From a virus: a DNA stretch of 64,000 nucleotides. A program made the translations under genes and the position numbers. Location: positions 1 to 64,000 of the IMG/VR virus record IMGVR_UViG_3300032236_000109; one strand, written 5' to 3'. Position 1 is the first letter of the stretch. Each line of letters opens with the position of its first letter. This document shows, one piece after another, positions 29,628 through 51,998 of the stretch. Under the pieces are notes generated by a model. That model saw only the letters and a program-made list of their open reading frames with translations. It made no database searches and was not told where the DNA came from.

Positions 29628-29631
29628 TACT

Positions 29632-32757: not shown

Positions 32758-32758
32758 T

Positions 32759-32974: not shown

Positions 32975-32975
32975 A

Positions 32976-34219: not shown

Positions 34220-34233
34220 CTTTTCCTCTTTTA

Positions 34234-34380
34234 TTATTTTGTTGCCAACATCCACAGTCCAACATTAGCACCTGCATAGCAGATGTAACATATGAACATG
34301 GCAAGATTTCCCTTGGTCATTTGCTCTATGGCAATGTATGCATAAATCAAGCCAGTTACGATAATTAGATTAGCGCTCAT
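34234..34380 (-). CDS. Small two-helix membrane protein (48 aa)
   Basis: The start overlaps the upstream stop (ATGA). Two hydrophobic helices, LIIVTGLIYAYIAI and LAMFICYICYAGANVGLWML, are separated by a short polar EQMTKGN turn. One of several tiny membrane genes in this operon. Function unknown. Confidence 0.5.
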   Translation of the reverse strand: MSANLIIVTGLIYAYIAIEQMTKGNLAMFICYICYAGANVGLWMLATK

Positions 34381-34919
34381 CTAAAGCCTGATATCCTCGG
34401 CGAGAAAACGAATGTCGCTTGATAGCGTCTTTGAGGCGGTACGTTAGGATCCACCAAAGCACGGATATTCCAACCAAGATTAACCATAAAGCACCGACTA
34501 AAGCCAATAGGGGTAATAAACACAAATTGAAATAGTCCACTAGACTTAACGAGTAGATGCCCCGCTTTCGCATTATCATTGTCTTTAATCTCCCGATCAC
34601 CACTCCAAGTTACTGGAGCTAAACCATCAATGTACTGTATTCCATAGCTATAGGCTGGATTACGCCACAGCCATAGCACTTGAGACCAGTAGCTATGCGG
34701 ATGGATAGACTGAAACGTAAAGTCTCCCCAAAGGTTGTTATCGGGCGTCTGGAACCAGTTTAACCATGTAGGCAACCAAGGACCCGGACCATAGCCGCTA
34801 TTGTTGTTAATTGGTCCATCCTTGATGCTGGCAAACTTCGGTAGGATTGGCGCTAATACCATCGCTAAAGCAGTCACCACTAATGATACTAAAACCATAA
34901 ATGCATATCTAAAATACAT
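34377..34919 (-). CDS. Conserved membrane-anchored phage protein, DUF7338-like
   Basis: 180 residues from an ATG with AAGGAG upstream; a longer frame would run back into the preceding glycosyltransferase gene. N-terminal membrane helices (YFRYAFMVLVSLVVTALAMVL) are followed by GPWLPTWLNWFQTPDNNLWG and VLWLWRNPAYSYG, a Trp-rich pattern I recall from uncharacterised phage proteins annotated DUF7338. No catalytic motif. Adjacent to the glycosyltransferases, so an envelope or glycan link is possible. Confidence 0.65.
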   Translation of the reverse strand: MYFRYAFMVLVSLVVTALAMVLAPILPKFASIKDGPINNNSGYGPGPWLPTWLNWFQTPDNNLWGDFTFQSIHPHSYWSQVLWLWRNPAYSYGIQYIDGLAPVTWSGDREIKDNDNAKAGHLLVKSSGLFQFVFITPIGFSRCFMVNLGWNIRALVDPNVPPQRRYQATFVFSPRISGFR

Positions 34920-34921
34920 AA

Positions 34922-35701
34922 TTAACTCCTTGGAAGTGCGCCAGTGAAACCGTAAGTTCCGGTATGAGTAAAGTGCGCCCATGGTGCTGCATAGACTTTA
35001 AAGCCCGCTTCTCTAGCAATCTTGCAGAAGTGATAGTCTTCTGACAATAAACGGTTAGACTCTTCGTCAATGCTGGTAGCAAAGAATTCTTTAATGACTT
35101 TTACTTCACGAACGGTATCTACGGCGTGATACATATCATTGGTGTAACTAGGTACTTTGTCTGCCAAAGCTTCAAAGACTTTACGTTTGATCAGCATAAA
35201 CCCTGTACCGCCGTTAGCAATCTCCAATGGCTCGTTGATGCTGCCAGATGTTGTAGTTTGACCATGTGGTAAATTTACAACAAAAGCTCCAGTGTGGGTT
35301 TGCAGCTCTTGCGGTGGAACGCCACGTTTAACAGCCTCAGTAACTTCTACCCAGTTGATCTCTTTCTTTGGATATAAGCCGCAGATAATATCTTTGTCTG
35401 CTTGAACCATGCGTGGAATGTCTTGTGGATTAAAACCAATGTCGGCGTCAATAAACATTAGGTGAGTAGCATCAGACTTAAGGAAGTCATATGCCATACT
35501 GTTTCTAGCACGGGTAATCAATGACTCATTCATCATAAAGCTATAGTACATCTGGATCCCGTTTTGCCCCATAACTCCTACAGTTTGCATAATTGCTGAG
35601 CAATACAAACCAGTACACATACCGCCGTACATTGGTGTAGCTACAAATAATGCAGCCTTTGGCGCCTGTTTGACTACCAATTTATCTTTTTTAAAACTCA
35701 T
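34922..35701 (-). CDS. GT-A fold glycosyltransferase-like protein
   Basis: 259 residues. The N-terminal nucleotide-sugar fold (KAALFVATPMYGGMCTGLYC) is followed by SLITRARNSMAYDFLKS and HLMFIDADIGF, whose D-A-D is the metal-binding DxD. Further on, GGTGFMLIKRKVFE and SEDYHFCKIAREAGFKVYA complete a glycosyltransferase pattern. The sugar and acceptor are unknown. Together with the next four genes it forms a glycan or small-molecule cassette. Confidence 0.8.
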   Translation of the reverse strand: MSFKKDKLVVKQAPKAALFVATPMYGGMCTGLYCSAIMQTVGVMGQNGIQMYYSFMMNESLITRARNSMAYDFLKSDATHLMFIDADIGFNPQDIPRMVQADKDIICGLYPKKEINWVEVTEAVKRGVPPQELQTHTGAFVVNLPHGQTTTSGSINEPLEIANGGTGFMLIKRKVFEALADKVPSYTNDMYHAVDTVREVKVIKEFFATSIDEESNRLLSEDYHFCKIAREAGFKVYAAPWAHFTHTGTYGFTGALPRS

Positions 35702-36381
35702 TTATTTCTCCAAGGTAAGGGTTGATTATATGCTTTCTTCATTTGTTCATTGCCTTCTCTAAACATTTCAAATAATCGTTCGGGCGCTCGGTAATTAACT
35801 GTAGCCTCGCCTGTGCATCCAAAGGAAGGCAGATGTTTGGCGGCAGCTTTATAGAACTGGCGGTCTGCACCCCATTGCCCGTAGAAAGCATGAGCAATAT
35901 TGACCAGATACTCACGCTTAAAGCAATAACAGTTAGTATCGACAAAATTGAGTAGATGATCGTAAAACGCCGGGTAGCGACCGAGTGACTCGCAATCATC
36001 GTCACAAACATATTGTCCTCGTTCATCACAGATTCTCCTCAAGCTGTATGACCACATCAGGTCTTTTGATTTAATTTTATTAATCATGGTTTCCACATGA
36101 TTTGGTTCGTACCAATTATCCTCATCTAAAAATAAAATGTAATCAGCGTTTACCATTAGTGGCATAGCGGCATAGACTCGGTGTCCATACCAGTTATTAG
36201 CGCCTACATTCTCAGGTAAAACAATACGGTGTACGGAAGAGAAAAAGTGAGGGTTATTTGTTGCATCTTTACCATCAGCCACAAGTAAATGCTCCACCGG
36301 AATAGTCTGATTAGCTACGCTTTCTACTGCATCTTTAAGTGTATCTTTCCCAGTAGTTGGGGTAATGACCATTATTCGCAT
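35698..36381 (-). CDS. Family 2-like glycosyltransferase
   Basis: 227 residues: RIMVITPTTGKDTLKDAVES is the GT2 start, YILFLDEDNWYEPNHVE carries the DxD, and a later part (DTNCYCFKREYLV, QWGADRQFYKAA) fits the acceptor side. No membrane segment. Coupled by ATGA to the GT-A gene and overlapping the nuclease-like gene upstream. Acts on cytoplasmic nucleotide-sugar donors; target could be virion protein, DNA or host surface glycan (inference). Confidence 0.82.
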   Translation of the reverse strand: MRIMVITPTTGKDTLKDAVESVANQTIPVEHLLVADGKDATNNPHFFSSVHRIVLPENVGANNWYGHRVYAAMPLMVNADYILFLDEDNWYEPNHVETMINKIKSKDLMWSYSLRRICDERGQYVCDDDCESLGRYPAFYDHLLNFVDTNCYCFKREYLVNIAHAFYGQWGADRQFYKAAAKHLPSFGCTGEATVNYRAPERLFEMFREGNEQMKKAYNQPLPWRNK

Positions 36382-36803
36382 GCTAACTCCGTGCCGTAAG
36401 AAAACAACATATCTTTCTTTATTAAAAATGCTTTTTTACTCACCTTATCACCTTTACCAGTAAATTCTACTGTGCGCAATTTATTGTCATCAATACAGTT
36501 ATGAATGTTTTGTTTTTTCATCATAACAAACACATGATCATCATAGAATAACCAATAATCTGCAGTGCTTGCAGATAAAGCAGATGGCTTTCCATTCATC
36601 TCAACTTCAATAACAATGTTTCCAGTTTCGTTACTCTTCGGGTCATACTTCACTTCTACAGATTTATGTATCTCTGGCACCCAAATATCGTAACCTTGAA
36701 ATGCGTTAATCAATACTGCACAAGGATGCCTTCTTTGAATGATTGCTAAAGCTTTTCTCTCTACTGCTTTGCCACGCTCTAGGTCTTCAAAAAAACTGTT
36801 CAT
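36372..36803 (-). CDS. Putative restriction-type PD-(D/E)XK nuclease fold protein
   Basis: 143 residues. GYDIWVPEIHKSVEVKYDPK contains D...E-V-K spaced as in PD-(D/E)XK nucleases, preceded by a helix with RKALAIIQRRHP. Length suits a small resolvase or restriction-like domain. No DNA-binding domain is obvious. It sits between glycosyltransferase and radical SAM genes, which is odd for a nuclease, so the fold call is uncertain. Confidence 0.55.
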   Translation of the reverse strand: MNSFFEDLERGKAVERKALAIIQRRHPCAVLINAFQGYDIWVPEIHKSVEVKYDPKSNETGNIVIEVEMNGKPSALSASTADYWLFYDDHVFVMMKKQNIHNCIDDNKLRTVEFTGKGDKVSKKAFLIKKDMLFSYGTELACE

Positions 36804-37675
36804 ACGCCTAGCTCAAGTACGTTTTCACAAGACTTACAGATGCTGCACTTATTAAACTCTGGAGACTCATTGATATCAATTAAATCTTGTAAGGGTTTAC
36901 CCTGCATAACTTCTTCATAAGACTGGGTTAACAAGTTGCCGATCACGTGCTTAAGGTTATAGTCCATGCAGCATAGAACGACATCACCGTTAGGCAGTAG
37001 CACATTGCGGTCATAGAACGGCGTACTTTTGCAAGTCAACGAAAAAGCATTGTGCGGCGTTATGCTGATTGGTTGTCCTTTAATCTGCTCTAAGTCCAAG
37101 CTATCTGCTCTGGTATGACCTTGCCAGCTAGGGAGTCGCCCAACAAAGTCTTGCAGCTCTGGATGTACAAAGCCCGACTTATCCATAGTCATAGCGCCCA
37201 CTCCACAAGGCACCTTTGTATTGGTCATAATCGCTGCAGCCCGCTGCCACTCCTCACTATTCTTCCAGCCCTTCATGTTTCCATTGGCATCAGGAAAGTG
37301 AAACATCATTACTTCTACTTGGTCTGGGTGATCTTCCAAGACTTTACGGACTCGCTCAGGATCTGTCATCCCGTACAGGGTCGTGTATATAGCAACGTGA
37401 TATCCCATGTATAGAGTCTCTTCTAGCATTGCCGTACACTCTGGGTTAGCCCAAGGTTCAGACATGCCGGAAAAATCAATACGGGTGTTTTTAGGCAGCT
37501 TTACGAGCATCTTTGTAAAGTCGGTCTGTGTCATGTACTTAGTCTTTTTGCCATACTCTGTGCGTAGATTATCTTGCGGGCAAAATGTACACATCAGCGG
37601 GCAGCCGATCATTGTGGTCAACTCCATGACAGGACCATCTGCATGAATTATTCCGTATTTTTCTCTCATAATCAT
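36800..37675 (-). CDS. Radical SAM protein with SPASM-like C-terminus
   Basis: 291 residues from the ATG at 37675 (near a weak AAGG). MELTTMIGCPLMCTFCPQDN carries the Cx3Cx2C that binds the 4Fe-4S cluster and SAM; FSGMSEPWANPE is the Gly/Glu motif 2. The C-terminal part has LLPNGDVVLCCMDYN and KCSICKSC, extra cysteines as in SPASM domains, which hold auxiliary clusters. Such enzymes modify peptides, sugars or cofactors. Substrate unknown; lies among glycosyl- and methyltransferases. Confidence 0.88.
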   Translation of the reverse strand: MIMREKYGIIHADGPVMELTTMIGCPLMCTFCPQDNLRTEYGKKTKYMTQTDFTKMLVKLPKNTRIDFSGMSEPWANPECTAMLEETLYMGYHVAIYTTLYGMTDPERVRKVLEDHPDQVEVMMFHFPDANGNMKGWKNSEEWQRAAAIMTNTKVPCGVGAMTMDKSGFVHPELQDFVGRLPSWQGHTRADSLDLEQIKGQPISITPHNAFSLTCKSTPFYDRNVLLPNGDVVLCCMDYNLKHVIGNLLTQSYEEVMQGKPLQDLIDINESPEFNKCSICKSCENVLELGV

Positions 37676-37683
37676 TTTAAACC

Positions 37684-37929
37684 TTATCTGTAACGTGGCA
37701 TGCAAGTGACTTCTACTGGAATGTCAGTAGTGTGTCCATTAATCCTTCGTTTGGTGGTAATCACATACGGGCGCAATCCTGATCCTTCGCATTCTGTAAC
37801 GCCGTTAATGACTTCGTTACGGGTTAGCGGAGAAATCTCTTTATCCAAAATTAACTCTTGGCTAGGCGCTTCTCTGGATGTACCGCAAGCGGTTAATAAT
37901 AATGCAGCTAATACAATTATATATTTCAT
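37684..37929 (-). CDS. Small lipoprotein (81 aa)
   Basis: Signal peptide MKYIIVLAALLLTAC with lipobox L-T-A-C (Cys15), then a polar mature part with two further cysteines (TECEG, VTCMP) that may form a disulfide. Preceded by GAGGAG. Secreted and lipid-anchored, so it may alter the cell surface, for example in superinfection exclusion, in line with the surrounding glycan genes. Family unknown. Confidence 0.75.
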   Translation of the reverse strand: MKYIIVLAALLLTACGTSREAPSQELILDKEISPLTRNEVINGVTECEGSGLRPYVITTKRRINGHTTDIPVEVTCMPRYR

Positions 37930-38664
37930 TTATGACTCCTCTTGATAAAACATTGCTGGTGGTAATGGGCGATTAGGTTTATCCAATACGTTTGGTTGGT
38001 CTAATGGATGCGGGAACTCTGTTGCATATCCCTCTGGCTCAGCACGGTCTTTGCGCAGCAACGTTAATTCAAATACCGTAGGCATCAACATACCTTCTAC
38101 TTCAATAAATTCGCAGTTGTTGTTGGGATGGCTGTGAACTACATGGAAGTCTTGTAATAACTTGGCAAAGAAAGTCTGTACTACTTCCCAAGCAAGCGGC
38201 GTAAACCAAGTATGAGCATTATGTATCTCAATGGCTATGATTCTAAAGCGGCGCAAGATGTCAATCGGCGTAGCTAGAATGGTTGTATATTCGCTACCTT
38301 CAATATCCATCTGCAAGATTAAATCACCAAACTCATTAGCTTTATTTCTTACCCAAAACTCTAGTGTCATGTAGCCATCAGTATTGATGCCATCCAAATA
38401 CTTTTTGGTGAAGGACGCTACCTCTAGTCCTGCTGGCGGTGCATCTACAGAAGCATCCGCAAGGTGAGACCGTATGCCCCGTTTAAGAAGATCTTGCTCA
38501 AAGGTGGCAATAACGTCTACCCCCGGAGAGAAGCACGTTGAAATGCCGCTTAAATCGTCTGGAATCAGGTATCCGCCATCGTTATTTCCGCCAATACGTA
38601 CCAGATCGTATTTGGTTTTAACTGGATACAGCGACTCCAAAAGACTTTGTAGTTGCTCAATCAT
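37930..38664 (-). CDS. FkbM-family methyltransferase
   Basis: 244 residues. RIGGNNDGGYLIPDDL (SAM-binding start), CFSPGVDVIATFEQDLLKRG, and LQMDIEGSEYTTIL are the FkbM signatures; the D-I-E-G-S-E segment is diagnostic. FkbM enzymes methylate sugar or polyketide hydroxyls; in polysaccharide loci they act on glycans. Coupled by ATGA to the fucosyltransferase-like gene. Confidence 0.88.
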   Translation of the reverse strand: MIEQLQSLLESLYPVKTKYDLVRIGGNNDGGYLIPDDLSGISTCFSPGVDVIATFEQDLLKRGIRSHLADASVDAPPAGLEVASFTKKYLDGINTDGYMTLEFWVRNKANEFGDLILQMDIEGSEYTTILATPIDILRRFRIIAIEIHNAHTWFTPLAWEVVQTFFAKLLQDFHVVHSHPNNNCEFIEVEGMLMPTVFELTLLRKDRAEPEGYATEFPHPLDQPNVLDKPNRPLPPAMFYQEES

Positions 38665-39518
38665 TTAACTATTCCTCTGACAAATTCCATGGCGTTATTT
38701 AGACTTGGTTCTTCCCATAGTAACGGGCGATTATACATAGCCTCATACAGCTCCATGCTTTCGTCATATGCTTGAATGGTTGTAACAAACCAACTCAAGT
38801 CTTTGGTGTTCATATAGTTTAGATAAGCTCCCTCATGGAAGTCGCAGTCCACGGATAACGTACCACTGTATATCGGTACAGTACCGCCCGCATAGGCGTC
38901 AATCAGCTTCTCGGTTACATAGCCATCGTAAACAGAGTTCTCTGGACATAAGCAAAACTTATAGTCTGGCAAGATATCAAACTTAGAATTACGTAAAGAC
39001 CTACCAAACATATTGCCGTATCCATCTACGGGTTTATACTTAGATATAGAGTTATAAAGGTTTACCCTTAGTCCTTCAGGGTTGCCAGCAATCATAGCGC
39101 AAAAGCGATCTTTCTTACTCAGATCAAGAGTTCTTTGCTGTGTTAGCGGTTTAATCGGAATCAATGGTTCATAACCATGATTGTGGGAATTTGGTTTGCG
39201 TGGTTTTTGTTCAAATCCATCCCAAGCAAGCCTAGCGTACCACAACGGTAATCTAAAGTTCCGCCCGCCATAACTATCATAGTCAAACGATAGAGAGTAA
39301 TCATACCCAATATAACTGGGGCGCATATTCTCACCAATGTACTGAATAGTTTTCTTTGGATCAGTCTGCACATTACCAAAGACAGAACTAACAATCAGGT
39401 CTGCAGTATGCGGGTTGTGAGTATATTCAAATCCACCCAAGGCTTCCTTAAAAAAGAACTCAAAAAAGTCTCCGTCAAAAGCCCCGTCCCAAAAGTTCAC
39501 TACGCATATTTTTTTCAT
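38661..39518 (-). CDS. GT10 alpha-fucosyltransferase-like protein
   Basis: 285 residues. The C-terminal donor-binding motif CPENSVYDGYVTEKL with GGTVPIYSG is the hallmark of family GT10 alpha-1,3/4-fucosyltransferases using GDP-fucose. The N-terminal half has DGDFFEFFFKEALGG and a SFDYDSYGGRNFRLP stretch usual in the family. No membrane tail as in bacterial homologues. Predicted to add fucose (or a related 6-deoxy sugar) to an acceptor that cannot be named from sequence. Confidence 0.85.
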   Translation of the reverse strand: MKKICVVNFWDGAFDGDFFEFFFKEALGGFEYTHNPHTADLIVSSVFGNVQTDPKKTIQYIGENMRPSYIGYDYSLSFDYDSYGGRNFRLPLWYARLAWDGFEQKPRKPNSHNHGYEPLIPIKPLTQQRTLDLSKKDRFCAMIAGNPEGLRVNLYNSISKYKPVDGYGNMFGRSLRNSKFDILPDYKFCLCPENSVYDGYVTEKLIDAYAGGTVPIYSGTLSVDCDFHEGAYLNYMNTKDLSWFVTTIQAYDESMELYEAMYNRPLLWEEPSLNNAMEFVRGIVK

Positions 39519-39802
39519 TAGCAGCGCCCATCATCATCTTGAACGTCTTTATTTTTCTTGCCCTTCTTCGTTTCCAACGTAGCTATAACCTTCTGTTGCT
39601 GGCGATTTACAGCCATAATATGTGCCGCTAACTCTTCTAGTTCTTCGCTATATTGCTGAAGTATTTCTGTTGCAGCCCACAATGCACCGCTCTCAGCATT
39701 ATCTGTAATACGATCTGCCACCAGTTCCACAATCATTGCGGCGCTGTGAATCTTGTAACCAATCTCGCTAACTCGGTTAGCTTTCTCCCAAAGTCCGTCC
39801 AT
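39518..39802 (-). CDS. Conserved small helical phage protein (94 aa)
   Basis: Start MDGLWEKANRVSEIGYKIHS at 39802 is chosen because GAGGAG lies six bases upstream; an earlier ATG lacks one. The core AAMIVELVADRITDNAESGALW is a recurrent small-protein motif I recall from other phages. Helical throughout, ends basic then acidic. Stop overlaps the GT10 start region (TAATG). Function unknown. Confidence 0.6.
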   Translation of the reverse strand: MDGLWEKANRVSEIGYKIHSAAMIVELVADRITDNAESGALWAATEILQQYSEELEELAAHIMAVNRQQQKVIATLETKKGKKNKDVQDDDGRC

Positions 39803-39959
39803 CTTTTTCTCCTCGTAGTAAAGTGTGTCCAAATATGTAGTAAAGTTGTCCGCTGCTTTTTTCAATAAGCTTGCGTTTTTTGTGTATAGAGTCTTCATCT
39901 TTTAAGTACCAAGTGATATGGTTATCTAGCTTAAACATTTCTTCTTTGCGCTTACGCAT
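39777..39959 (-). CDS. Small basic hypothetical protein (60 aa)
   Basis: Start at 39959 overlaps the stop of the tiny upstream gene (TGATG). Very basic N-terminus (MRKRKEEMFKLDNHITWYL), then Lys-rich helix. The stop overlaps the next gene. No family recognised; a nucleic-acid-binding role is possible from charge. Confidence 0.45.
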   Translation of the reverse strand: MRKRKEEMFKLDNHITWYLKDEDSIHKKRKLIEKSSGQLYYIFGHTLLRGEKDGRTLGES

Positions 39960-40033
39960 CATCTGCCTTTCATAAACAGAAAGACTGCATAGCAAACAGC
40001 AAACACCAGCGCCGCAACAATCAGCTCAATCAT
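39959..40033 (-). CDS. Tiny membrane peptide (24 aa)
   Basis: ATGA overlap with the upstream stop and TGATG overlap with the downstream start. The whole product (MIELIVAALVFAVCYAVFLF, then MKGR) is one transmembrane helix. Size makes it easy to dismiss, but the exact coupling at both ends and similar peptides at 41003 and 47899 support it. Function unknown. Confidence 0.4.
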   Translation of the reverse strand: MIELIVAALVFAVCYAVFLFMKGR

Positions 40034-40061
40034 TTCTCTTGTGCCTTTCTTAGTATTGCTC
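40030..40061 (-). repeat. 31-nt gene-junction repeat, copy 1
   Basis: On the minus strand it encodes (A)ILRKAQEK, contains the AAGAAAGG ribosome-binding region, and ends in the AATGA stop/start overlap of the next gene. The same sequence recurs at 40523-40553 and 40753-40783, so each junction carries identical C-terminal codons, RBS and start. Confidence 0.85.
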
Positions 40062-40317
40062 TAGCAAATTCAATAACTCCTGTTTGCCAATCCATGTCTA
40101 AATGTTCTTCAGATAATTCTTCTATTTCCTCATCTGTTAGTGTCTTTTCAGATTCTTGCGTAAAGTCAAACAGTCGTTGTAATGCAGCTTCCTTTTTCAA
40201 CGCCTCTATTTCAGCTTGTTGCTGGCGTAGCATGGCAACGGCATCGCCAATATAACCAAGGCAAAAACCATCAACCATTTCTTTTTCCATTGTGTCAGCT
40301 AGTTCTAATGCGTTCAT
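40030..40317 (-). CDS. Small acidic protein, LTDEEI/ILRKAQEK family, copy 1
   Basis: 95 residues from the ATG at 40317, overlapping the upstream stop (ATGA). Layout: MNALELADTMEKEM start, a RQQQAEIEAL coiled-coil, then a TLTDEEIEEL...FARAILRKAQEK end. The start resembles the MNANELADKL genes at 41095 and 41312; the tail is shared with 40523. The last codons are part of a 31-nt repeat (see repeat entries). Function unknown. Confidence 0.6.
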   Translation of the reverse strand: MNALELADTMEKEMVDGFCLGYIGDAVAMLRQQQAEIEALKKEAALQRLFDFTQESEKTLTDEEIEELSEEHLDMDWQTGVIEFARAILRKAQEK

Positions 40318-40526
40318 TCTGTCAATGCCTCCGTATCCTCTACCCAGCCAAAATATCCAGCCGCTTCGCCACAAGCAGCGCAACGCAAGCGTGGAAAGTT
40401 ACTTCCTCTTACGCCATACTCAGCAGTCCAAGTTTTATTATTACATCCACCGCATACAAGTACTTCTGTCATAGCCGTTGGTGTGTCATTCCTGTGGGCA
40501 AGAAACACGACTTTGTTTTCGTTCAT
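40314..40526 (-). CDS. Small zinc-ribbon-like protein (70 aa)
   Basis: Four cysteines in two pairs, CGGC (EVLVCGGCNNKTW) and CAAC (LRCAACGEAAGYF), make a zinc ribbon around a short TAEYGVRGSNFPR loop. Acidic end (GWVEDTEALTE). Coupled to genes on both sides by ATGA-type overlaps. Possibly a small regulator or nucleic-acid binder. Confidence 0.62.
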   Translation of the reverse strand: MNENKVVFLAHRNDTPTAMTEVLVCGGCNNKTWTAEYGVRGSNFPRLRCAACGEAAGYFGWVEDTEALTE

Positions 40527-40553
40527 TTCTCTTGTGCCTTTCTTAGTATTGCT
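40523..40553 (-). repeat. 31-nt gene-junction repeat, copy 2
   Basis: Identical to copies 1 and 3. Forms the end of the gene at 40523-40756 and the start of the zinc-ribbon gene at 40314-40526. Confidence 0.85.
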
Positions 40554-40756
40554 TTAGCAAAACCCAATAGTTCTAAATCATCAGGATAAACATTGCCTGA
40601 CTCTTTGCTTTTCCAAGCGCCATTTTCAACAGCTAAAGAGTATATTTCCTCATCTGTTAGTGTCTTTGCTGGACTATATGTAGTTTCACATGAATGTCCT
40701 GCGCCATTTTCCATTTTCATCTCTTCTCCGCAAAAACAACAAGTCATCTTTATCAT
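40523..40756 (-). CDS. Small protein, LTDEEI/ILRKAQEK family, copy 2 (77 aa)
   Basis: Starts MIKMTCCFCGEEMKMENG with a Cys cluster (TCCFCGEE) resembling a short zinc knuckle, then TLTDEEIYSLAVEN and the same tail FAKAILRKAQEK as copy 1. Mosaic of a zinc-binding head and the LTDEEI tail, which suggests assembly by recombination at the junction repeats. Confidence 0.6.
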   Translation of the reverse strand: MIKMTCCFCGEEMKMENGAGHSCETTYSPAKTLTDEEIYSLAVENGAWKSKESGNVYPDDLELLGFAKAILRKAQEK

Positions 40757-40783
40757 TTCTCTTGTGCCTTTCTTAGTATTGCT
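40753..40783 (-). repeat. 31-nt gene-junction repeat, copy 3
   Basis: Identical to copies 1 and 2; with copy 1 identity extends two bases further. A degenerate fourth copy lies at 40984-41005, at the next junction. Confidence 0.85.
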
Positions 40784-40986
40784 CTACGCATTTGTCCTGT
40801 TGAACGATTATTTCGTCTTGCTCTAAACACAATTGCTTTACCTAATCCACGCTTGAGCAAATCAAACTGCATATCATGGACAAGTCCGCAATCACAGCAA
40901 GCAAACTTGTATTTAATCCTATTTGGATAAACCCATTCTGACCAATCTCCATCTTTTTCTACTTCATGTTTTTTAAATCGGCTCAT
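40753..40986 (-). CDS. Conserved small phage protein with CCxC motif and ILRKAQEK tail (77 aa)
   Basis: Start MSRFKKHEVEKDGDWSEWVY at 40986 has an AAAGG-type site upstream. ACCDCGLVHDMQF and VFRARRNNRSTGQMRR form a small conserved phage protein I recall from other genomes; there the protein ends after the NNRSTGQ(V/M)RR region. Here it continues into AILRKAQEK, the tail of unrelated neighbours, so the junction repeat has been fused to its end. Confidence 0.65.
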   Translation of the reverse strand: MSRFKKHEVEKDGDWSEWVYPNRIKYKFACCDCGLVHDMQFDLLKRGLGKAIVFRARRNNRSTGQMRRAILRKAQEK

Positions 40987-41002
40987 TTCTTTCGTGCCTT
41001 TC

Positions 41003-41098
41003 TTAAATATGCAAACTAACCCAAACCAACACAATCAAAATTCCTATTGCTGGAACGGCTGGCATTAACGCATCCATAAACATTTCTAATTTATTCAT
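41003..41098 (-). CDS. Tiny membrane peptide (31 aa)
   Basis: ATGA overlap with the upstream stop. MNKLEMFMDALMPAVPAIGI then LIVLVWVSLHI is a single hydrophobic helix with a short polar head. Same style as the peptides at 39959 and 47899. Function unknown. Confidence 0.42.
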   Translation of the reverse strand: MNKLEMFMDALMPAVPAIGILIVLVWVSLHI

Positions 41099-41325
41099 TT
41101 TTCTTGCACTTTTTTTAATAATTCGTCAAGCATCATATTTCCTAAGTTTTCGTAACTTTTTATTTTGTTTTTCAACGCCTCAATTTCAGCTTGTTGCTGG
41201 CGTACCAAGGATTCAAGTTGGTCAATGTAGTGCTTTCTATTTCCGTAATAAACAGAGTCCATGTTAAACAAATCAACTTCTCGTAAATCCTCAAGCAATT
41301 TATCAGCTAGTTCATTTGCGTTCAT
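41095..41325 (-). CDS. Small coiled-coil protein, MNANELADKL family, copy A (76 aa)
   Basis: MNANELADKLLEDLREVDLF followed by VRQQQAEIEALKNKIK coiled-coil and a VQEK tail. Shares its start with 41312-41587 and its RQQQAEIEALK segment with 40030-40317. Function unknown. Confidence 0.58.
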   Translation of the reverse strand: MNANELADKLLEDLREVDLFNMDSVYYGNRKHYIDQLESLVRQQQAEIEALKNKIKSYENLGNMMLDELLKKVQEK

Positions 41326-41587
41326 TGCTCAGCTCCTTTGCTACCTCATTGCCACGCTCGGCGTATACCAGTTTGAACGCAAGGTCAACAATGTGTTTGT
41401 CTTGTGCTTTCATGTACTCTTTTTGCGCCTCAATAACATCAAGGTGGCGCTTTTGCCATTGCTCTAGGTTGTTGATTTTCTCTGCTTGCTGGCGTAGCAT
41501 GGTGGCTGCTTGTTCCATGTACTCATCGCAGTCATATTCCATAGTAAGGCTGGACATCAATTTATCAGCTAATTCATTTGCGTTCAT
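41312..41587 (-). CDS. Small coiled-coil protein, MNANELADKL family, copy B (91 aa)
   Basis: MNANELADKLMSSLTMEYDC, then MLRQQAEKINNLEQW coiled-coil. Start at 41587, two bases after the upstream stop. Overlaps copy A by 14 bases. Paralogue of copy A; the family appears in other phage accessory operons (recall) without known function. Confidence 0.58.
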   Translation of the reverse strand: MNANELADKLMSSLTMEYDCDEYMEQAATMLRQQAEKINNLEQWQKRHLDVIEAQKEYMKAQDKHIVDLAFKLVYAERGNEVAKELSNERK

Positions 41588-41588
41588 A

Positions 41589-41780
41589 TCAATGCGCCGT
41601 TGGAATGTTTTCAATCTCACGCTCTGCAAGCATGGCATCTGCAATCTCATAAGCCCGTCTTGCTGCTACCTCATCCCAGTTTTTGCCGCTGGATAAATCA
41701 AACTTCCAGTCGCCGGAACACATACCGCTCATTACTTTGGCGGCAAAATAATCTCTTAATCTACGTTGTCTATCAGTCAT
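41589..41780 (-). CDS. LRDYFAAK-family small protein, copy 1 (63 aa)
   Basis: LRDYFAAKVMSGM and AARRAYEIADAMLAERE are the two conserved segments of a small phage protein family I recall; a second member is at 48332-48553 on the other minus-strand operon. Helical, no membrane segment. Function unknown. Confidence 0.65.
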   Translation of the reverse strand: MTDRQRRLRDYFAAKVMSGMCSGDWKFDLSSGKNWDEVAARRAYEIADAMLAEREIENIPTAH

Positions 41781-41956
41781 ACTGTTTCCTCATATTTGGC
41801 TAATTGTTTTTTTAACTCTTTAATTTCAGCACATTTTTCGTTGTAATTTTTCATCCAAATATTTCTCTTGTAGGCAAAGTATTGAACTCTCCTACCTAAT
41901 ACATGTAAATCGTGCCTAAAGGCTTCAACCTCGTTTTGAAAATCATCTTGTGTCAT
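41777..41956 (-). CDS. First gene of the left minus-strand operon, small helical protein (59 aa)
   Basis: The ATG at 41956 follows a strong GAGGAG and is preferred to upstream in-frame codons. Helical, mixed charge (TQDDFQNEVEAFRHDLHVLG, YNEKCAEIKELKKQLAKYEE). Lies about 16 bases downstream of the predicted transcription start of the promoter at 41979-42007. Confidence 0.6.
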   Translation of the reverse strand: MTQDDFQNEVEAFRHDLHVLGRRVQYFAYKRNIWMKNYNEKCAEIKELKKQLAKYEETV

Positions 41957-41978
41957 ATACCTCTCCTCTTTTTTTAAG

Positions 41979-42007
41979 ACTATAATCATTACTATCAGAA
42001 ATGTAAA
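41979..42007 (-). promoter_or_regulatory. Sigma-70 promoter for the 12-kb minus-strand operon
   Basis: On the minus strand: TTTACA (42007-42002), a 17-base spacer, then TATAGT (41984-41979); each hexamer is one base from consensus. Predicted start near 41972, just ahead of the first gene with a GAGGAG site. No terminator was seen between the closely packed genes down to 29632. Confidence 0.75.
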
Positions 42008-42455: not shown

Positions 42456-42633
42456 TTCATGCGGCATGAATGCATGAATTTTCAATAAATGATGCATCTC
42501 ATTCTTATTTATAGGTTCCCTTTTGGTACCTTTAGGTATTAATTTTCTATATACATTGATACCTATAGGTATAAAAAATGCTAATAAGTATGCATATATA
42601 GGGTAAACCCTAATTGCTGTCAACGGCTGACAG
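42456..42633. promoter_or_regulatory. Intergenic hub with five inverted repeats; candidate replication/control region
   Basis: In the stretch between rusA and the next gene: TTCATGCGGCATGAA (42456-42470, perfect around a central G); TACCTTTAGGTA (42527-42538); ATACCTATAGGTAT (42559-42572, perfect); TAGGGTAAACCCTA (42599-42612, perfect); CTGTCAACGGCTGACAG (42617-42633). 42481-42600 is very A/T-rich. Followed by a TATAAT at 42639. Neighbours are resolvase, ParB-like, helicase and primase genes, so it could be an origin, an operator array or both. Confidence 0.6.
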
Positions 42634-42638
42634 CGTTG

Positions 42639-42644
42639 TATAAT
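42639..42644 (+). promoter_or_regulatory. TATAAT -10 box of the hairpin RNA gene
   Basis: Perfect TATAAT ending six bases before 42651. A clear -35 is missing (TTGCTG at 42614 would need a 19-base spacer), and the TGTCAACGG palindrome occupies the -20 to -33 region, suggesting regulation by its binding protein. Confidence 0.55.
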
Positions 42645-42650
42645 AGCAAC

Positions 42651-42730
42651 AATGCCCTCCTCGGCATCCTTGGTGCAACTCCTCATTGCACCCCCCTTTG
42701 GGAGCGTGAGTATACCGCTCCCATCTTTTT
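42651..42730 (+). ncRNA. Candidate small RNA with two anti-Shine-Dalgarno loops
   Basis: From the predicted start at ~42651 three hairpins follow: ATGCC/GGCAT with loop CTCCTC (42652-42667); GGTGCAA/TTGCACC with loop CTCCTCA (42672-42692); and an intrinsic terminator GGGAGCG/CGCTCCC (42700-42722) followed by ATCTTTTT. The two loops are exact complements of GAGGAG, the Shine-Dalgarno used repeatedly in the minus-strand operons. No reading frame of substance. Compact promoter-hairpins-terminator layout is that of a trans-acting small RNA; function is inference. Confidence 0.62.
42700..42730 (+). terminator. Intrinsic terminator of the hairpin RNA
   Basis: 7-bp perfect GC-rich stem GGGAGCG/CGCTCCC, 9-base loop, then ATCTTTTTA. 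Lies before the phasin-like gene, which has its own promoter. Confidence 0.75.
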
Positions 42731-42966: not shown

Positions 42967-43011
42967 GTGTTACACTAATTGCGCAGATTGGAACTTTGGA
43001 CGGTTCCTTGA

Positions 43012-47581: not shown

Positions 47582-47738
47582 ACTCGTTGTTTACAAATAC
47601 GGTTTGATCTAAGTCATATAGGTTCTTGATAATGGCGTTCCCGACTAGAAATGACTGGCTGGGATCGCCTATGAGTTCCATACTAACTTCAATCTTGCCG
47701 TTTTTGCCGTCTTTGAGGTAGATAATTGTTGCGTCCAT
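47547..47738 (-). CDS. Small hypothetical protein, last gene of the right minus-strand operon (63 aa)
   Basis: MDATIIYLKDGKNGKIEVSM: short beta-rich, acidic. Preceded by GGAG. Its 3' end overlaps the primase-like gene tail to tail, and its 5' part overlaps the upstream 80-residue frame by 70 bases. No family recognised. Confidence 0.5.
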   Translation of the reverse strand: MDATIIYLKDGKNGKIEVSMELIGDPSQSFLVGNAIIKNLYDLDQTVFVNNEFTQQPPTDLVQ

Positions 47739-47911
47739 TGGTTCTCCAAAGCCTGACCCTCAATAAATAACTTGGGGAAGGTGTTTACTAATAGTTCTAA
47801 GTTAGTTTCATCAGCCAATAACGCTGCTTCTCCTATTCTACCAGCAAAACCCCCCTGCTTTATCAGTTTATGGATAACTGGAATTAGCTTGTTTCGGTCT
47901 ATATAAAGCAT
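47669..47911 (-). CDS. Small hypothetical protein (80 aa)
   Basis: MLYIDRNKLIPVIHKLIKQG, then GRIGEAALLADETNLELLVN: helical with a GEAALLADETNLELL core I recall in other phage small proteins. The C-terminal ~25 residues overlap the next gene in another frame and contain the 18-base leader repeat (47748-47765), so they may not be conserved. Confidence 0.55.
   Translation of the reverse strand: MLYIDRNKLIPVIHKLIKQGGFAGRIGEAALLADETNLELLVNTFPKLFIEGQALENQWTQQLSTSKTAKTARLKLVWNS
47748..47765 (-). repeat. 18-nt leader repeat, copy 1
   Basis: Minus-strand TATTGAGGGTCAGGCTTT. It lies just upstream of ATG 47738, as its exact copy at 50444-50461 lies upstream of ATG 50428. Confidence 0.6.
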
Positions 47912-47976
47912 AAAGCTATCACCATCAGACCAAATAAGAAGGTGCAGATAATGTCTTCAGATTTTAGTTCGTCCAT
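47899..47976 (-). CDS. Tiny membrane peptide (25 aa)
   Basis: MDELKSEDIICTFLFGLMVI then ALCFI: one hydrophobic helix with an acidic head. Overlaps the stop of the upstream gene and the start of the downstream one, in the tight style of this operon. Third peptide of this sort in the genome. Confidence 0.4.
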   Translation of the reverse strand: MDELKSEDIICTFLFGLMVIALCFI

Positions 47977-48163
47977 GTTTAACCCCTATTCCATGTGCTT
48001 GTTCAATGCGTTTAACAAACTCAAAGAGCTGAACTCGATGAGCATATTTGCGTGATACATCCATGTAAATTTGCATAATCTCGAACGGCTCAAGGGGTGG
48101 GGATACTTCAATATCCTCCATCTCCCTGAGACCATCAAAGAATGCTTTTTCGTTATTAGTCAT
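47957..48163 (-). CDS. Small acidic hypothetical protein (68 aa)
   Basis: The ATG at 48163 overlaps the upstream stop; longer in-frame starts would cover that gene. MTNNEKAFFDGLREMEDIEV, then IYMDVSRKYAHRVQLFEFVK: acidic first half, helical second half. No family recognised. Confidence 0.5.
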   Translation of the reverse strand: MTNNEKAFFDGLREMEDIEVSPPLEPFEIMQIYMDVSRKYAHRVQLFEFVKRIEQAHGIGVKHGRTKI

Positions 48164-48335
48164 TGTCCAGTTCTGATTCAATATCGGTAATCTCAGTATA
48201 TTCTCCCAAATCTCCGATGTCATTCCCAAATTCATCACTGGCTACATCTTCGGCTTCCCCGTAGTCTGGCGATTCTACAAAGTAGGTCTTTGACCCTCTA
48301 AAGTAAATAGTGACTGCGTATCCCTTCTGTCTCAT
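48156..48335 (-). CDS. Small acidic hypothetical protein (59 aa)
   Basis: Start overlaps the upstream stop (ATGA). MRQKGYAVTIYFRGSKTYFV then a very acidic half (GEAEDVASDEFGNDIGDLGE). Net charge strongly negative, a profile seen in DNA mimics, although nothing else supports that. Confidence 0.5.
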   Translation of the reverse strand: MRQKGYAVTIYFRGSKTYFVESPDYGEAEDVASDEFGNDIGDLGEYTEITDIESELDND

Positions 48336-48553
48336 GCGTTGATCTCCCTTCCATAGTCTGCGGGATCCATGTCCCTGATTACCATCATGGCATCTGCGTA
48401 TTGATAAGCTAGTTCAGCAGCTCCAATAGGGCTGGCACTTGTCCATTTGTCAATTACTTGCGTCAAAGCCTTGGCAGCAAAATAATCACGCAAATCCATT
48501 CCTTGCCATTTATCAATGCTGGCTGTGTTTACATCTATTGGAAATGCTTTCAT
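48332..48553 (-). CDS. LRDYFAAK-family small protein, copy 2 (73 aa)
   Basis: ATG at 48553 overlaps the upstream stop (ATGA). DLRDYFAAKALTQV and AAELAYQYADAMMVIRD match the family seen at 41589-41780. The two operons therefore share a paralogous gene. Function unknown. Confidence 0.62.
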   Translation of the reverse strand: MKAFPIDVNTASIDKWQGMDLRDYFAAKALTQVIDKWTSASPIGAAELAYQYADAMMVIRDMDPADYGREINA

Positions 48554-48834
48554 ACATCCTCCTCGCATCTGCATCCAAAACCATCTTTAGCTGGGCAGTT
48601 ATGTTTATGGTATTTCTCTCCAATCAGTTTGCCCGTATCCACTTTATAGTTGTGGGCTAGCTCATCCATAAGCCTAGATAAGCTATAAGCTACATCCTCA
48701 TACGCATTCATATTTAAAATGTCATGTATGCGTTGATAGATATACTTGGTGGCTACTCTGCTAGCTCCCCATCCATTGGTATCGTCATCCATATACTGGT
48801 CAATCTGATTTAAAAAGTATTCTTTATTAATCAT
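48550..48834 (-). CDS. Small Cys/His-containing hypothetical protein (94 aa)
   Basis: Helical (NQIDQYMDDDTNGWGASRVA, LSRLMDELAHNYKVDTGKLI), ending with HKHNCPAKDGFGCRCEEDV, a His/Cys-rich tail that could bind metal. Overlaps neighbours at both ends. Function unknown. Confidence 0.55.
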   Translation of the reverse strand: MINKEYFLNQIDQYMDDDTNGWGASRVATKYIYQRIHDILNMNAYEDVAYSLSRLMDELAHNYKVDTGKLIGEKYHKHNCPAKDGFGCRCEEDV

Positions 48835-49003
48835 GGCTCACCTCGTTGATGTCATCAATCTCAAAATCACCTTCTCCGCACTCTGTCCACTCAATCTCGC
48901 CTTGATCTTCTTGCACCATCTCTTGGGCTTCTTCTTCAGAATCAGCACGAATAAAGGTCTCATACCAAATTAACTGGCTGCAAATTACTTTGTAAGTATT
49001 CAT
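48827..49003 (-). CDS. Small acidic protein, E-rich paralogue 1 (58 aa)
   Basis: MNTYKVICSQLIWYETFIRA, then DSEEEAQEMVQEDQGEIEWT: a beta strand, then a very acidic helix. Similar in plan to 49847-50023 and 49277-49453 (strand, aromatic, acid-rich helix), a small paralogue group in this operon. ATGA overlap with the upstream stop. Confidence 0.55.
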   Translation of the reverse strand: MNTYKVICSQLIWYETFIRADSEEEAQEMVQEDQGEIEWTECGEGDFEIDDINEVSHD

Positions 49004-49284
49004 ACTGTTTCCCTTTCGTCAATGACTGATTGCTGCCATACATTTATTGCATCCCAATTGATGCCTATTTCTGGATTTCCGTATTTATCCATCATCTCCA
49101 AAACAGATTGTGCTTCCTCATCTGTCAAAGTGATGTATTCTCCGTCTCCCGCATAGTATTCTTGGACGTCCTCAATATGCCACCAGTCCGCATGCCAATT
49201 AGGATCAGTAAGACGGATAATGTCTCTAGGATCAGGGATAGCCTGACCCTCTGGTAGATCAAATTCAACGATAACTTTAGGCAT
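49000..49284 (-). CDS. Small acidic hypothetical protein (94 aa)
   Basis: MPKVIVEFDLPEGQAIPDPR, then Trp/His-rich WHADWWHIEDVQEYYAG and a TLTDEEAQSVLEMMDKYG segment. Acidic overall. Overlaps neighbours at both ends. Function unknown. Confidence 0.55.
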   Translation of the reverse strand: MPKVIVEFDLPEGQAIPDPRDIIRLTDPNWHADWWHIEDVQEYYAGDGEYITLTDEEAQSVLEMMDKYGNPEIGINWDAINVWQQSVIDERETV

Positions 49285-49453
49285 TTTCTGTCTCCTTTAC
49301 TTCTTCAATATCGTAAATTTCCCAGTCAATATCTACTGGCTCGTCATCGAGATCAGCGTCCCATGCCTTTTCTCTTGCTTCTTCCCAGCTATTTGCTTCT
49401 ACTTCTATCAAGAAGTATTCTTTTTTAATAACCCATCCTTTGTATATAGCCAT
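49277..49453 (-). CDS. Small acidic protein, E-rich paralogue 2 (58 aa)
   Basis: ATG at 49453 sits after GAGGAGAATTGAA, the junction cassette shared with 49646. MAIYKGWVIKKEYFLIEVEA, then SWEEAREKAWDADLDDEPVD. Same plan as 48827-49003: strand pair then acidic helix. Ends KETENA, encoded by the second junction cassette. Confidence 0.57.
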   Translation of the reverse strand: MAIYKGWVIKKEYFLIEVEANSWEEAREKAWDADLDDEPVDIDWEIYDIEEVKETENA

Positions 49454-49454
49454 T

Positions 49455-49646
49455 TCAATTCTCCTCAAATCCAAGGTAATCAATAAGTTCTTGTTCAATA
49501 GCAAAATACAAAGCCTGACCTTTTTCTGTATTTCTAGTGCCGCCAATATTGTCTGGATCGGGTTCTATATATTCTCTATCCGTATCTAACGACACTTCTC
49601 TAACTACTGCCCAATATACTGCGTCTGCCATGTCATAAACATTCAT
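49455..49646 (-). CDS. Small hypothetical protein (63 aa)
   Basis: ATG at 49646 after GAGGAGAATTGAA. MNVYDMADAVYWAVVREVSL, then EKGQALYFAIEQELIDYLGF: helical, acidic. Ends FEEN and its stop is part of the same cassette as the next gene's start. Confidence 0.55.
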   Translation of the reverse strand: MNVYDMADAVYWAVVREVSLDTDREYIEPDPDNIGGTRNTEKGQALYFAIEQELIDYLGFEEN

Positions 49647-49647
49647 T

Positions 49648-49854
49648 TCAATTCTCCTCAATTTCAGTAATTACAAAACTATCTGCAACAATTGCGCCGA
49701 CCTTTAATGGCTCTCCGTCCATGTAAAAGAAAATCTTTTCGTCTGCGTAATCCTCTTTACCATCCCAATCACCTAATGCAATAGTGACTGGATAGATATT
49801 ATCGGGTTCGTCCGTCCAATAGCCCTCGCAATACTTGGTCTGGTATTTAGACAT
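49648..49854 (-). CDS. Small acidic hypothetical protein (68 aa)
   Basis: ATG at 49854 after GGAGACAG, inside the junction cassette shared with 49284. MSKYQTKYCEGYWTDEPDNI, then DWDGKEDYADEKIFFYMDGE: beta-rich, acidic. Ends IEEN. No family recognised. Confidence 0.55.
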   Translation of the reverse strand: MSKYQTKYCEGYWTDEPDNIYPVTIALGDWDGKEDYADEKIFFYMDGEPLKVGAIVADSFVITEIEEN

Positions 49855-50023
49855 TTTCTGTCTCCTTTTCCCATTGTTTAACTTGCATATAAACATTCTG
49901 AATGTATCCGCAGAATGGTATTGCCTTGCACATTTCTACTGCTTCAAACTGATCTTCGGCTAAAAATTCCTCATATTTATAACCTTCTGAATCATGGTGA
50001 TACTCAATCAAATAGTAATTCAT
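49847..50023 (-). CDS. Small acidic protein, E-rich paralogue 3 (58 aa)
   Basis: MNYYLIEYHHDSEGYKYEEF, then LAEDQFEAVEMCKAIPFCGY: same plan as the proteins at 48827 and 49277. Two cysteines. Start overlaps the upstream stop (ATGA) after GGGGGAGG. Ends KETENV, from the junction cassette. Confidence 0.55.
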   Translation of the reverse strand: MNYYLIEYHHDSEGYKYEEFLAEDQFEAVEMCKAIPFCGYIQNVYMQVKQWEKETENV

Positions 50024-50169
50024 AATTCCTCCCCCATAAGTAAAGTAATCAATACTCCGCTAAACAACATCCCAAATACTAAAAACCAATTTACTGCGTA
50101 GAGCTGCGTCTGTCCATAAAAACAAGTTATAAATATAAGCCCGTATATAAAAAACAACAGTCTATTCAT
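50020..50169 (-). CDS. Small two-helix membrane protein (49 aa)
   Basis: MNRLLFFIYGLIFITCFYGQ, then WFLVFGMLFSGVLITLLMGE: two transmembrane helices with a short TQLYAV turn. AAGGATAAG upstream. Function unknown; an early membrane effector is possible. Confidence 0.52.
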   Translation of the reverse strand: MNRLLFFIYGLIFITCFYGQTQLYAVNWFLVFGMLFSGVLITLLMGEEL

Positions 50170-50173
50170 GGTC

Positions 50174-50428
50174 TTATCCTTCACGAGCTAAGCGAACATA
50201 AGGTCTAACAAAACCTTTGCATGGGATTGAGGACTTAGGTTCATCCACGAAAACCCGTTCTGCTAAATCGGATGGTCTCAAAAACTTATGGCGTTCCTCT
50301 GACATAATTTGATCAATCAATTCATTCAATGGTTGGTTTACTAATCCAAATTCAGGATTGAGCTTTCCGTTAATCATCGGTTTACGGGCTAATGCTTTGA
50401 GTTTGTTTTGGTTCTTAATGCTCAACAT
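50174..50428 (-). CDS. Small basic hypothetical protein (84 aa)
   Basis: MLSIKNQNKLKALARKPMIN, then LNELIDQIMSEERHKFLRPS and SIPCKGFVRPYVRLAREG. Mixed charge, basic ends. Starts after the only sizeable gap in this operon, behind the 18-nt leader repeat, so it may have its own promoter. No family recognised. Confidence 0.57.
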   Translation of the reverse strand: MLSIKNQNKLKALARKPMINGKLNPEFGLVNQPLNELIDQIMSEERHKFLRPSDLAERVFVDEPKSSIPCKGFVRPYVRLAREG

Positions 50429-50612
50429 GGTAAATCTCCTATAAAAGCCTGACCCTCAATAGCAAAATGCTACCTTGCGTCTCAGCTAAAGTTAAAAAAT
50501 AATTCTCAACACTTAAGTGATGAATTCATACCCCCGTTAATTCAACGGGTAAAACATAGGGTAAACCCTACTCCAAAATACCCCCTTTAAATGAGGTATT
50601 TCAGGGAAGTGT
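50429..50612 (-). promoter_or_regulatory. Intra-operon gap with leader repeat, hairpin and TAGGGTAAACCCTA palindrome
   Basis: 184 bases without a gene. Contains the second copy of the 18-nt leader repeat (50444-50461), a TAGCA-TTT-TGCTA hairpin just upstream on the minus strand, CCCGTT/AACGGG (50533-50549) and the perfect palindrome TAGGGTAAACCCTA (50557-50570), also found in the hub at 42599. Probably an internal control point. No clean promoter hexamers recognised. Confidence 0.5.
50444..50461 (-). repeat. 18-nt leader repeat, copy 2
   Basis: Exact copy of 47748-47765, placed about 15 bases upstream of the start at 50428, followed by an AGGAG site. Confidence 0.6.
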
Positions 50613-50819
50613 CTATTCTGTGAAAAAATCCTCTTCTTTCCCGTTCATGGTTGTGCCATCCCGCCAAGTAAGCCCTATGGTGTGGTCATTCTGTAAGCAC
50701 GTTATATTCCACCACTGCTCCCCATCGTCATAAAAGCCCGTAAACACTTCATAGCCCTTGTGATGCTGGAATACCCTCTTGCCCTCTGCTAGTGCCGCTT
50801 TAATCTCGCTTAGTGTCAT
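50613..50819 (-). CDS. Small hypothetical protein (68 aa)
   Basis: MTLSEIKAALAEGKRVFQHH, then GYEVFTGFYDDGEQWWNITC and GLTWRDGTTMNGKEEDFF. An N-terminal helix and a small beta sheet; Trp-rich. Ends before the gap at 50612. No family recognised. Confidence 0.57.
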   Translation of the reverse strand: MTLSEIKAALAEGKRVFQHHKGYEVFTGFYDDGEQWWNITCLQNDHTIGLTWRDGTTMNGKEEDFFTE

Positions 50820-50968
50820 TTCAAACCCCTATTAAAGTTTTGCAAATACTCCATGATCGGTAAAACTTGGTATTTCTTAAGGTTTACTGCCTGCGCTACT
50901 TTCTCGCTGAATGTTTCCAATACTGCTACCTTATCGGCTCGCCTAACAATTACCCATGATGTAGTCAT
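50816..50968 (-). CDS. Small hypothetical protein (50 aa)
   Basis: MTTSWVIVRRADKVAVLETF, then EKVAQAVNLKKYQVLPIMEY. Alpha/beta, basic. Start after TAGGGGCTTGAA, stop within TAGGGGTTTGAAATGA, two near-identical junction cassettes. I recall similar short proteins in other phage operons. Confidence 0.57.
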   Translation of the reverse strand: MTTSWVIVRRADKVAVLETFSEKVAQAVNLKKYQVLPIMEYLQNFNRGLK

Positions 50969-51075
50969 TTCAAGCCCCTATAAATGGCTATAAACTCGGC
51001 TACTTGCTGGGCGGTCAATATGCCCTTAGCGTAAGCCCTTGTAAGTGTGTAGTGTGTCCACTGGTGGTTTGTCAT
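50965..51075 (-). CDS. Tiny hypothetical protein (36 aa)
   Basis: MTNHQWTHYTLTRAYAKGIL then TAQQVAEFIAIYRGLK: two short helices. ATGA overlaps at both ends. Ends YRGLK, close to the NRGLK end of the next gene because of the repeated junction. Confidence 0.45.
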   Translation of the reverse strand: MTNHQWTHYTLTRAYAKGILTAQQVAEFIAIYRGLK

Positions 51076-51443
51076 GCTGTAATCTCCTCTAGGTTTACTG
51101 CTTCGGCTGTAATCTTTTCAATCTGGAAGGTATAAATACAATCCCACAATTGAATGTCTGCTTCTTTCCATGATTCAATTTCCCATTCTGCGGCTTTGCA
51201 GCCGTCTGCATTTTCCATAATTGAAATATCTACTCTGCCCGCTTCATCACAAGAATTCAGCTCCATGCAGCTACTATCGCCGCCTGTAAAGTCTAAGAGC
51301 TGCTGCAAAAGCCCGTCTAGGGTCTCTGCCTTGAATAGCTGGTTTCCGTCAATAATCCCGCCAGTGTGCGGAATGCATCCCTCTTGATAGATATCTTCCT
51401 CGTAAAACTTTACCCATCCATTAGCTTGATAGTATGTGTTCAT
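51072..51443 (-). CDS. Hypothetical acidic protein (123 aa)
   Basis: MNTYYQANGWVKFYEEDIYQ, GGIIDGNQLFKAETLDGLLQ, then EADIQLWDCIYTFQIEKITA. Acidic alpha/beta protein with four cysteines not in a recognisable motif. Overlaps neighbours by ATGA. Function unknown. Confidence 0.57.
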   Translation of the reverse strand: MNTYYQANGWVKFYEEDIYQEGCIPHTGGIIDGNQLFKAETLDGLLQQLLDFTGGDSSCMELNSCDEAGRVDISIMENADGCKAAEWEIESWKEADIQLWDCIYTFQIEKITAEAVNLEEITA

Positions 51444-51996: not shown

Positions 51997-51998
51997 AA

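What the first reader, a model, noticed from the sequence alone, without database searches (positions are those of the whole stretch)
42639..42730. Candidate phage small RNA with two anti-Shine-Dalgarno hairpin loops
A TATAAT box, then exactly at the expected start three consecutive hairpins, ending in a strong intrinsic terminator, in ~80 bases without a protein. The first two loops are CTCCTC and CTCCTCA, exact complements of GAGGAG, which is the ribosome site of many genes in both minus-strand operons. Loops displaying CUCC-type motifs are how several known bacterial small RNAs block translation. A phage-coded global silencer (of phage early or host mRNAs) would fit.
Basis: partly seen in the sequence, partly recalled or inferred. 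Interest (0 to 1): 0.82.

Follow-up and report, generated by a model that had tools for sequence, protein, structure and literature searches.

The report
Conserved phage RNA mimicking ribosome anti-site
A family of uncultured phages carries a short, apparently independently transcribed RNA whose two hairpin loops keep the sequence UCCUC while their stems mutate in matched pairs, so it probably blocks ribosome-binding sites, most likely those of the phage's own opposite-strand early-type genes.

Summary
Window 42639-42730 (+) holds a sigma-70-like promoter, three hairpins starting about 7 bases after the -10 box, and an intrinsic terminator, with no conserved protein. Eight further phages carry the same RNA downstream of a RusA gene, mostly followed by Rfam RNA RF02932. 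Across the nine, stems covary (26 double-change cells against 6.5 in shuffles; 99% paired) while the loops keep UCCUC (17 of 18), so the loops are the selected part. It is not simply a leader of the next small gene: two members lack that gene. No Rfam family matches; RF02278, functionally close, scores 11 bits at best (cut-off 50). GAGGAG ribosome sites, the exact complement, lie mostly on the opposite strand (54 of 214 genes against 6 of 158). That favours silencing of the phage's own early-type operons over, or besides, host mRNAs. Two cautions: sister phages whose slot holds a different RNA without these loops show the same ribosome-site bias, and no transcript or host is known. Best reading: a new phage sRNA family working like NmsR, Burkholderia double-hairpin RNAs and P1 c4 RNA. 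The silencing itself is inferred, not shown.

The parts
42600..42611 (+). palindrome AGGGTAAACCCT, or a near form, upstream of the promoter in most class A and several class B loci; candidate operator
   Evidence: function inferred
42617..42633 (+). inverted repeat CTGTCAACGGCTGACAG overlapping the -35 region; differing palindromes near this place in several relatives; candidate operator
   Evidence: function inferred
42617..42644 (+). sigma-70-like promoter: CTGTCA, spacer 16, TATAAT; -10-like box kept in relatives 6-8 nt before HP1
42652..42667 (+). hairpin 1, loop CUCCUC (42657-42662); stem covaries AUGCC/GGCAU to AUACC/GGUAU
42672..42692 (+). hairpin 2, loop CUCCUCA (42679-42685); all four inner pairs show compensatory changes
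42700..42730 (+). hairpin 3 plus T-run: intrinsic terminator with covarying stem and a conserved loop of the UGAGUAUAC type
29481..41989 (-). first minus-strand operon region, candidate target mRNAs; GAGGAG ribosome sites at several genes (e.g. those starting near 31610, 32757, 33191, 37929, 39802, 41956)
   Evidence: target role inferred
47669..52307 (-). second minus-strand operon region, candidate target mRNAs; GAGGAG ribosome sites (e.g. genes starting near 48553, 49453, 49646, 51646, 52307)
   Evidence: target role inferred

Best explanation
It is an independently transcribed phage small RNA of about 80 nt (42651/2-42730). A sigma-70-like promoter, probably controlled by adjacent palindromic operators, starts it directly at hairpin 1, and hairpin 3 terminates it. 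The loops of hairpins 1 and 2 present UCCUC and base-pair with GAGGA(G) Shine-Dalgarno sequences, so that ribosomes cannot bind. The most likely targets are the phage's own opposite-strand (early-type) genes, whose ribosome sites are often GAGGAG, while same-strand structural genes mostly use (A/T)AGGAG and pair one base less. Host mRNAs with GAGGAG sites would be hit too. Shown by computation: anatomy, conservation, covariation, loop invariance, ribosome-site bias. Inferred: transcription, pairing in the cell, silencing, targets and timing.
For: Fold z -5.2. Nine members in one syntenic slot. 99.1% of pair cells standard, 26 double-change cells against 6.5 in shuffles and 1-4 in slid versions. 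UCCUC kept in 8 of 9 HP1 loops and 9 of 9 HP2 loops although all HP2 inner pairs changed. A -10-like box always 6-8 nt before HP1. GAGGAG ribosome sites 54/214 on the opposite strand against 6/158 on the RNA's strand, p = 4e-9; on the opposite strand AGGAG is preceded by G more at start sites than elsewhere, p = 6e-8. Loop-to-ribosome-site pairing energy is stronger for minus-strand genes, p = 0.002. Precedents: NmsR, whose two anti-SD stretches were tested by mutation (PMC5362039), and Burkholderia ncS27, whose overexpression attenuates growth (PMC5688073).
Against: No expression data and no known host. Class B relatives have the same GAGGAG bias (26/118 against 1/58) without these loops, so the bias is not caused by this RNA. 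HP1 of L413 has lost the motif. A complement of UCCUC is expected in any mRNA with strong ribosome sites, so target specificity is weakly constrained. The most diverged analogue (L130/L132) is uncertain because its MFE fold pairs it differently. 'Early' is inferred from gene content only.
Confidence: 0.6

Rival explanations
1. The RNA acts mainly on host mRNAs: a phage counterpart of the widespread betaproteobacterial anti-SD RNAs, slowing host translation or metabolism to favour the phage; effects on phage genes are secondary.
For: RF02278 double-hairpin RNAs, with CU-rich stretches complementary to ribosome sites, are common in Burkholderiales (26 of 41 genomes), and ncS27 attenuates growth when overexpressed (PMC5688073). 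RF02932 next to the phage RNA also occurs in a few Burkholderiales genomes, which suggests such hosts.
Against: No host is known. The phage's own GAGGAG sites are an obvious and abundant complement. The phage RNA is not an RF02278 member.
Confidence: 0.2
2. It is a cis element: a leader or attenuator of the downstream small ORF (42774-42914) or genes beyond, and the loops serve termination control or protein binding.
For: It sits directly upstream of a small conserved ORF and ends in a terminator.
Against: L418 and L419 keep the RNA but have no small ORF; most members with the ORF have a -10-like box between terminator and ORF; in L421 the small ORF lies on the opposite strand. The ORF's ribosome site is (A/T)AGGAGA, not GAGGA.
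Confidence: 0.08
3. The UCCUC loops bind a protein or another RNA, and complementarity to Shine-Dalgarno sites is coincidental.
For: Two near-identical loops could be a dimeric protein site; the HP3 loop (UGAGUAUAC) is also conserved and unexplained.
Against: The loop's variable first base is C or U in most members, both of which pair with the G of GAGGAG; no recognised protein motif; direct precedents for anti-SD loops exist.
Confidence: 0.12

Closest known systems
NmsRA/NmsRB (Neisseria meningitidis sibling sRNAs)
   Same: Two UC-rich anti-SD stretches in one short sRNA acting by pairing over the Shine-Dalgarno site (PMC5362039)
   Different: Bacterial and metabolic, tandem siblings; here the RNA is phage-encoded and each motif sits in its own hairpin loop
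RF02278 Betaproteobacteria toxic small RNA / Burkholderia double-hairpin RNAs (ncS03, ncS05, ncS27, ncS62)
   Same: Very short, hairpins plus terminator, CU-rich stretches complementary to ribosome sites (PMC5688073)
   Different: RF02278 members have a 5' CUCCUCC stretch and a CU-rich loop, then the terminator; the phage RNA has two loop-borne motifs and a third hairpin; CM score far below cut-off
c4 RNA of phages P1/P7
   Same: Phage-encoded RNA blocking translation by pairing at the ribosome site, complementary sequences likely in loops (PMC12197685)
   Different: c4 targets one mRNA (ant) by sequence-specific pairing; no c4 match here in Rfam scans
AbcR1/2 and CcsR (cuckoo) RNAs of alphaproteobacteria
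   Same: CU-rich anti-SD motifs (AbcR: lead from a paper abstract search, PMC8844928; the CcsR loop motif is from own knowledge and not confirmed in the text read)
   Different: Other hosts and structures; CcsR is cut from a 3' UTR (PMC8625941), whereas this RNA has its own promoter-like site

Membership tests
RF02278 Betaproteobacteria toxic small RNA | covariance-model score at or above 50 bits | tested here: not met
   best class A score 11.4 bits, in L122's contig; no hit on the window RNA
RF02278 Betaproteobacteria toxic small RNA | 5' UGUCUCCUCC-type stretch plus one CU-rich loop, then terminator | tested here: not met
   RF02278 members read; the phage RNA begins with a hairpin and has two motif loops
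RF02278 Betaproteobacteria toxic small RNA | inhibits growth when expressed | not testable with these tools
   needs expression
Trans-acting anti-SD sRNA (functional class) | own promoter-like site and intrinsic terminator, no conserved ORF | tested here: met
   by sequence only
Trans-acting anti-SD sRNA (functional class) | unpaired, conserved motif complementary to Shine-Dalgarno sites | tested here: met
   UCCUC in 17 of 18 loops, stems covarying
Trans-acting anti-SD sRNA (functional class) | represses target translation by pairing | not testable with these tools
   needs reporters and compensatory mutations
c4 antisense RNA | match to an Rfam c4 family | tested here: not met
   no such match in Rfam scans up to E = 10

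The most novel reading that the evidence does not exclude
The phage uses one small RNA as a strand-wide translational switch: early-type operons carry GAGGAG ribosome sites, late genes (A/T)AGGAG, and a two-loop UCCUC RNA shuts off the former as a set, a general early-to-late translational shut-off encoded in the ribosome site itself.
Probability: 0.28. Interest if true: 0.85.

Novelty: new variant of a known kind. Interest (0 to 1): 0.6.

Why it matters
If true, it would be a phage-encoded RNA that silences a whole class of genes through the ribosome site rather than one antisense target, with the target code visible in the genome as a split between two operon sets. The RNA family has no match in Rfam release 15. 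It makes a simple reporter experiment possible on a question usually addressed at transcription: how phages turn off early genes.

Tried and rejected
A 14-base hairpin 1 pattern in viral contigs gave 120 stretches, nearly all chance. DNA search of phage and plasmid records found nothing. A search of 399 genomes of a Burkholderiales-type order with model R1 gave only chance-level scores (about 20-22 bits). RF02278 membership was rejected. The leader/attenuator reading was rejected on synteny. The idea that GAGGAG usage co-evolved with the RNA was weakened by class B phages having the same bias. The minus strand (GAGGA loops, CsrA-like) was rejected because the promoter-like site and terminators are on the plus strand in all members. 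The alignment was made by hand from stem and loop segments (HP2 and HP3 trimmed to inner pairs, some loops trimmed by a base or more); the full segments were verified in the sequences first. The original 'toxic genes' paper (Kimelman 2012) is not held and could not be read.

Full report
What is there. The window is nearly all of a 65,015-base IMG/VR virus record. The + strand carries structural genes (large terminase at 54491-55978) and replication genes (RusA, ParB-like, helicase, primase). Two minus-strand operons (about 29.5-42.0 and 47.7-52.3 kb) carry many small genes, an Erf-like annealing protein and a fucosyltransferase. The finding sits on the + strand between RusA and a 46-aa ORF.

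Chance. The fold is far better than shuffles (z = -5.2). A pair of anti-SD-loop hairpins within 40 nt would appear in about 5% of random 64-kb windows, so by itself it is not decisive.

Relatives. Searching with the helicase, a two-gap DNA pattern and the 61-aa protein downstream of RF02932 gave eight further contigs with the same RNA: L122, L123, L133, L237, L413, L415, L418, L419. Their RusA proteins are 59-97% and ParB-like proteins 44-88% identical to the window's, so most are not near-copies, although L122 is close and L418/L419 resemble each other. The order is RusA, the RNA, usually the small ORF, a second structured RNA in most, RF02932 in all but one (not detected at the gathering score in L413), the 61-aa protein, ParB-like, helicase.

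Covariation. With stems and loops taken by hand and checked in the sequences, 99.1% of pair cells are standard. There are 26 cells with changes on both sides (6.5 in shuffles; 1-4 when the partner is slid), and 8 of 13 pairs show such changes. UCCUC is kept in 8 of 9 HP1 loops and all HP2 loops although every HP2 inner pair changed. Stems drift, loops do not: the loops are what is selected. The exception is HP1 of L413 (loop CAGC); its HP2 loop is lengthened to UCCUCCUCU.

Own transcription unit. A -10-like box lies 6-8 nt before HP1 in all nine, so transcription would start at the base of HP1. Palindromes lie upstream in most members. L418 and L419 have no small ORF after the RNA, and in L421 the small ORF is on the other strand, so it is not simply that ORF's leader.

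Targets. In class A contigs, GAGGAG ribosome sites occur at 54 of 214 genes on the opposite strand and 6 of 158 on the RNA's strand (p = 4e-9); on the opposite strand, AGGAG is preceded by G more often at start sites than elsewhere (p = 6e-8). Minus-strand genes also pair better with the loops (p = 0.002). UCCUC pairs fully with GAGGA but loses the last base against (A/T)AGGA. Caveat: class B phages, in which the slot holds a different RNA (a UCUCGUGAGGA hairpin plus terminator, no UCCUC loops), show the same bias (26/118 against 1/58), so the split predates or is independent of this RNA. Strand is also only a proxy for timing, and related contigs are not independent samples, so the p-values are upper estimates of the evidence.

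Possible third form. L130 and L132 (nearly the same sequence) have, in the same slot, local hairpins with loops ACCUCC, CUCC and UCCUCC; the MFE fold pairs the first two differently, so this is only suggestive.

Known systems. No Rfam family matches. RF02278 reaches 11.4 bits on L122's copy and nothing on the window copy (cut-off 50), so the RNA is not a member, but it works like one on paper: RF02278 RNAs are short, carry CU-rich stretches complementary to ribosome sites and are common in Burkholderiales (PMC5688073). NmsR in Neisseria gives the best tested mechanism (PMC5362039). P1 c4 RNA is the phage precedent for translation blocking by loops (PMC12197685).

Verdict. A real, conserved, covarying phage small RNA with functional UCCUC loops (confidence about 0.9). 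Action by occluding GAGGA(G) ribosome sites is the best mechanism (about 0.6). A dedicated early-operon switch is the attractive but unproven form.

Noticed in passing
window 42986-43136 (+); also L133, L237, L123, L415, L418, L419, L428, L429, L430, L421, L434: A second structured RNA, wider spread than the finding: a hairpin whose loop UUUGGAC pairs with a downstream GUCCAAA (pseudoknot, covarying), further helices CUUAUG/CAUAAG, GGUCUG/CAGACU and CCUAUAC/GUAUGGG, ending in a T-run; no Rfam match. Pairs counted on 12 sequences: 23 double-change cells against 7.5 in shuffles for four helices.
   Followed up: partly
window 43144-43268 (+): Rfam RF02932 'Betaproteobacteria-1' RNA (93 bits), conserved in most of these phages and over cut-off in 4 of 300 Burkholderiales-type genomes; the one paper search for its name found nothing.
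   Followed up: partly
L421 3180-3265, L428-L432, L435: In sister phages the slot holds another short RNA: a hairpin with nearly invariant UCUCGUGAGGA (possible GUGA tetraloop with a bulged U) plus terminator.
   Followed up: partly
L122 2140-2553: A gene for a protein resembling an HNH endonuclease (by eye) lies where the other phages have the second structured RNA.
   Followed up: no
window 42774-42914: A small conserved ORF (41-49 aa, MFxF(D/E)KQ...-like), no Pfam or PHROG match, absent in L418/L419 and on the opposite strand in L421.
   Followed up: no
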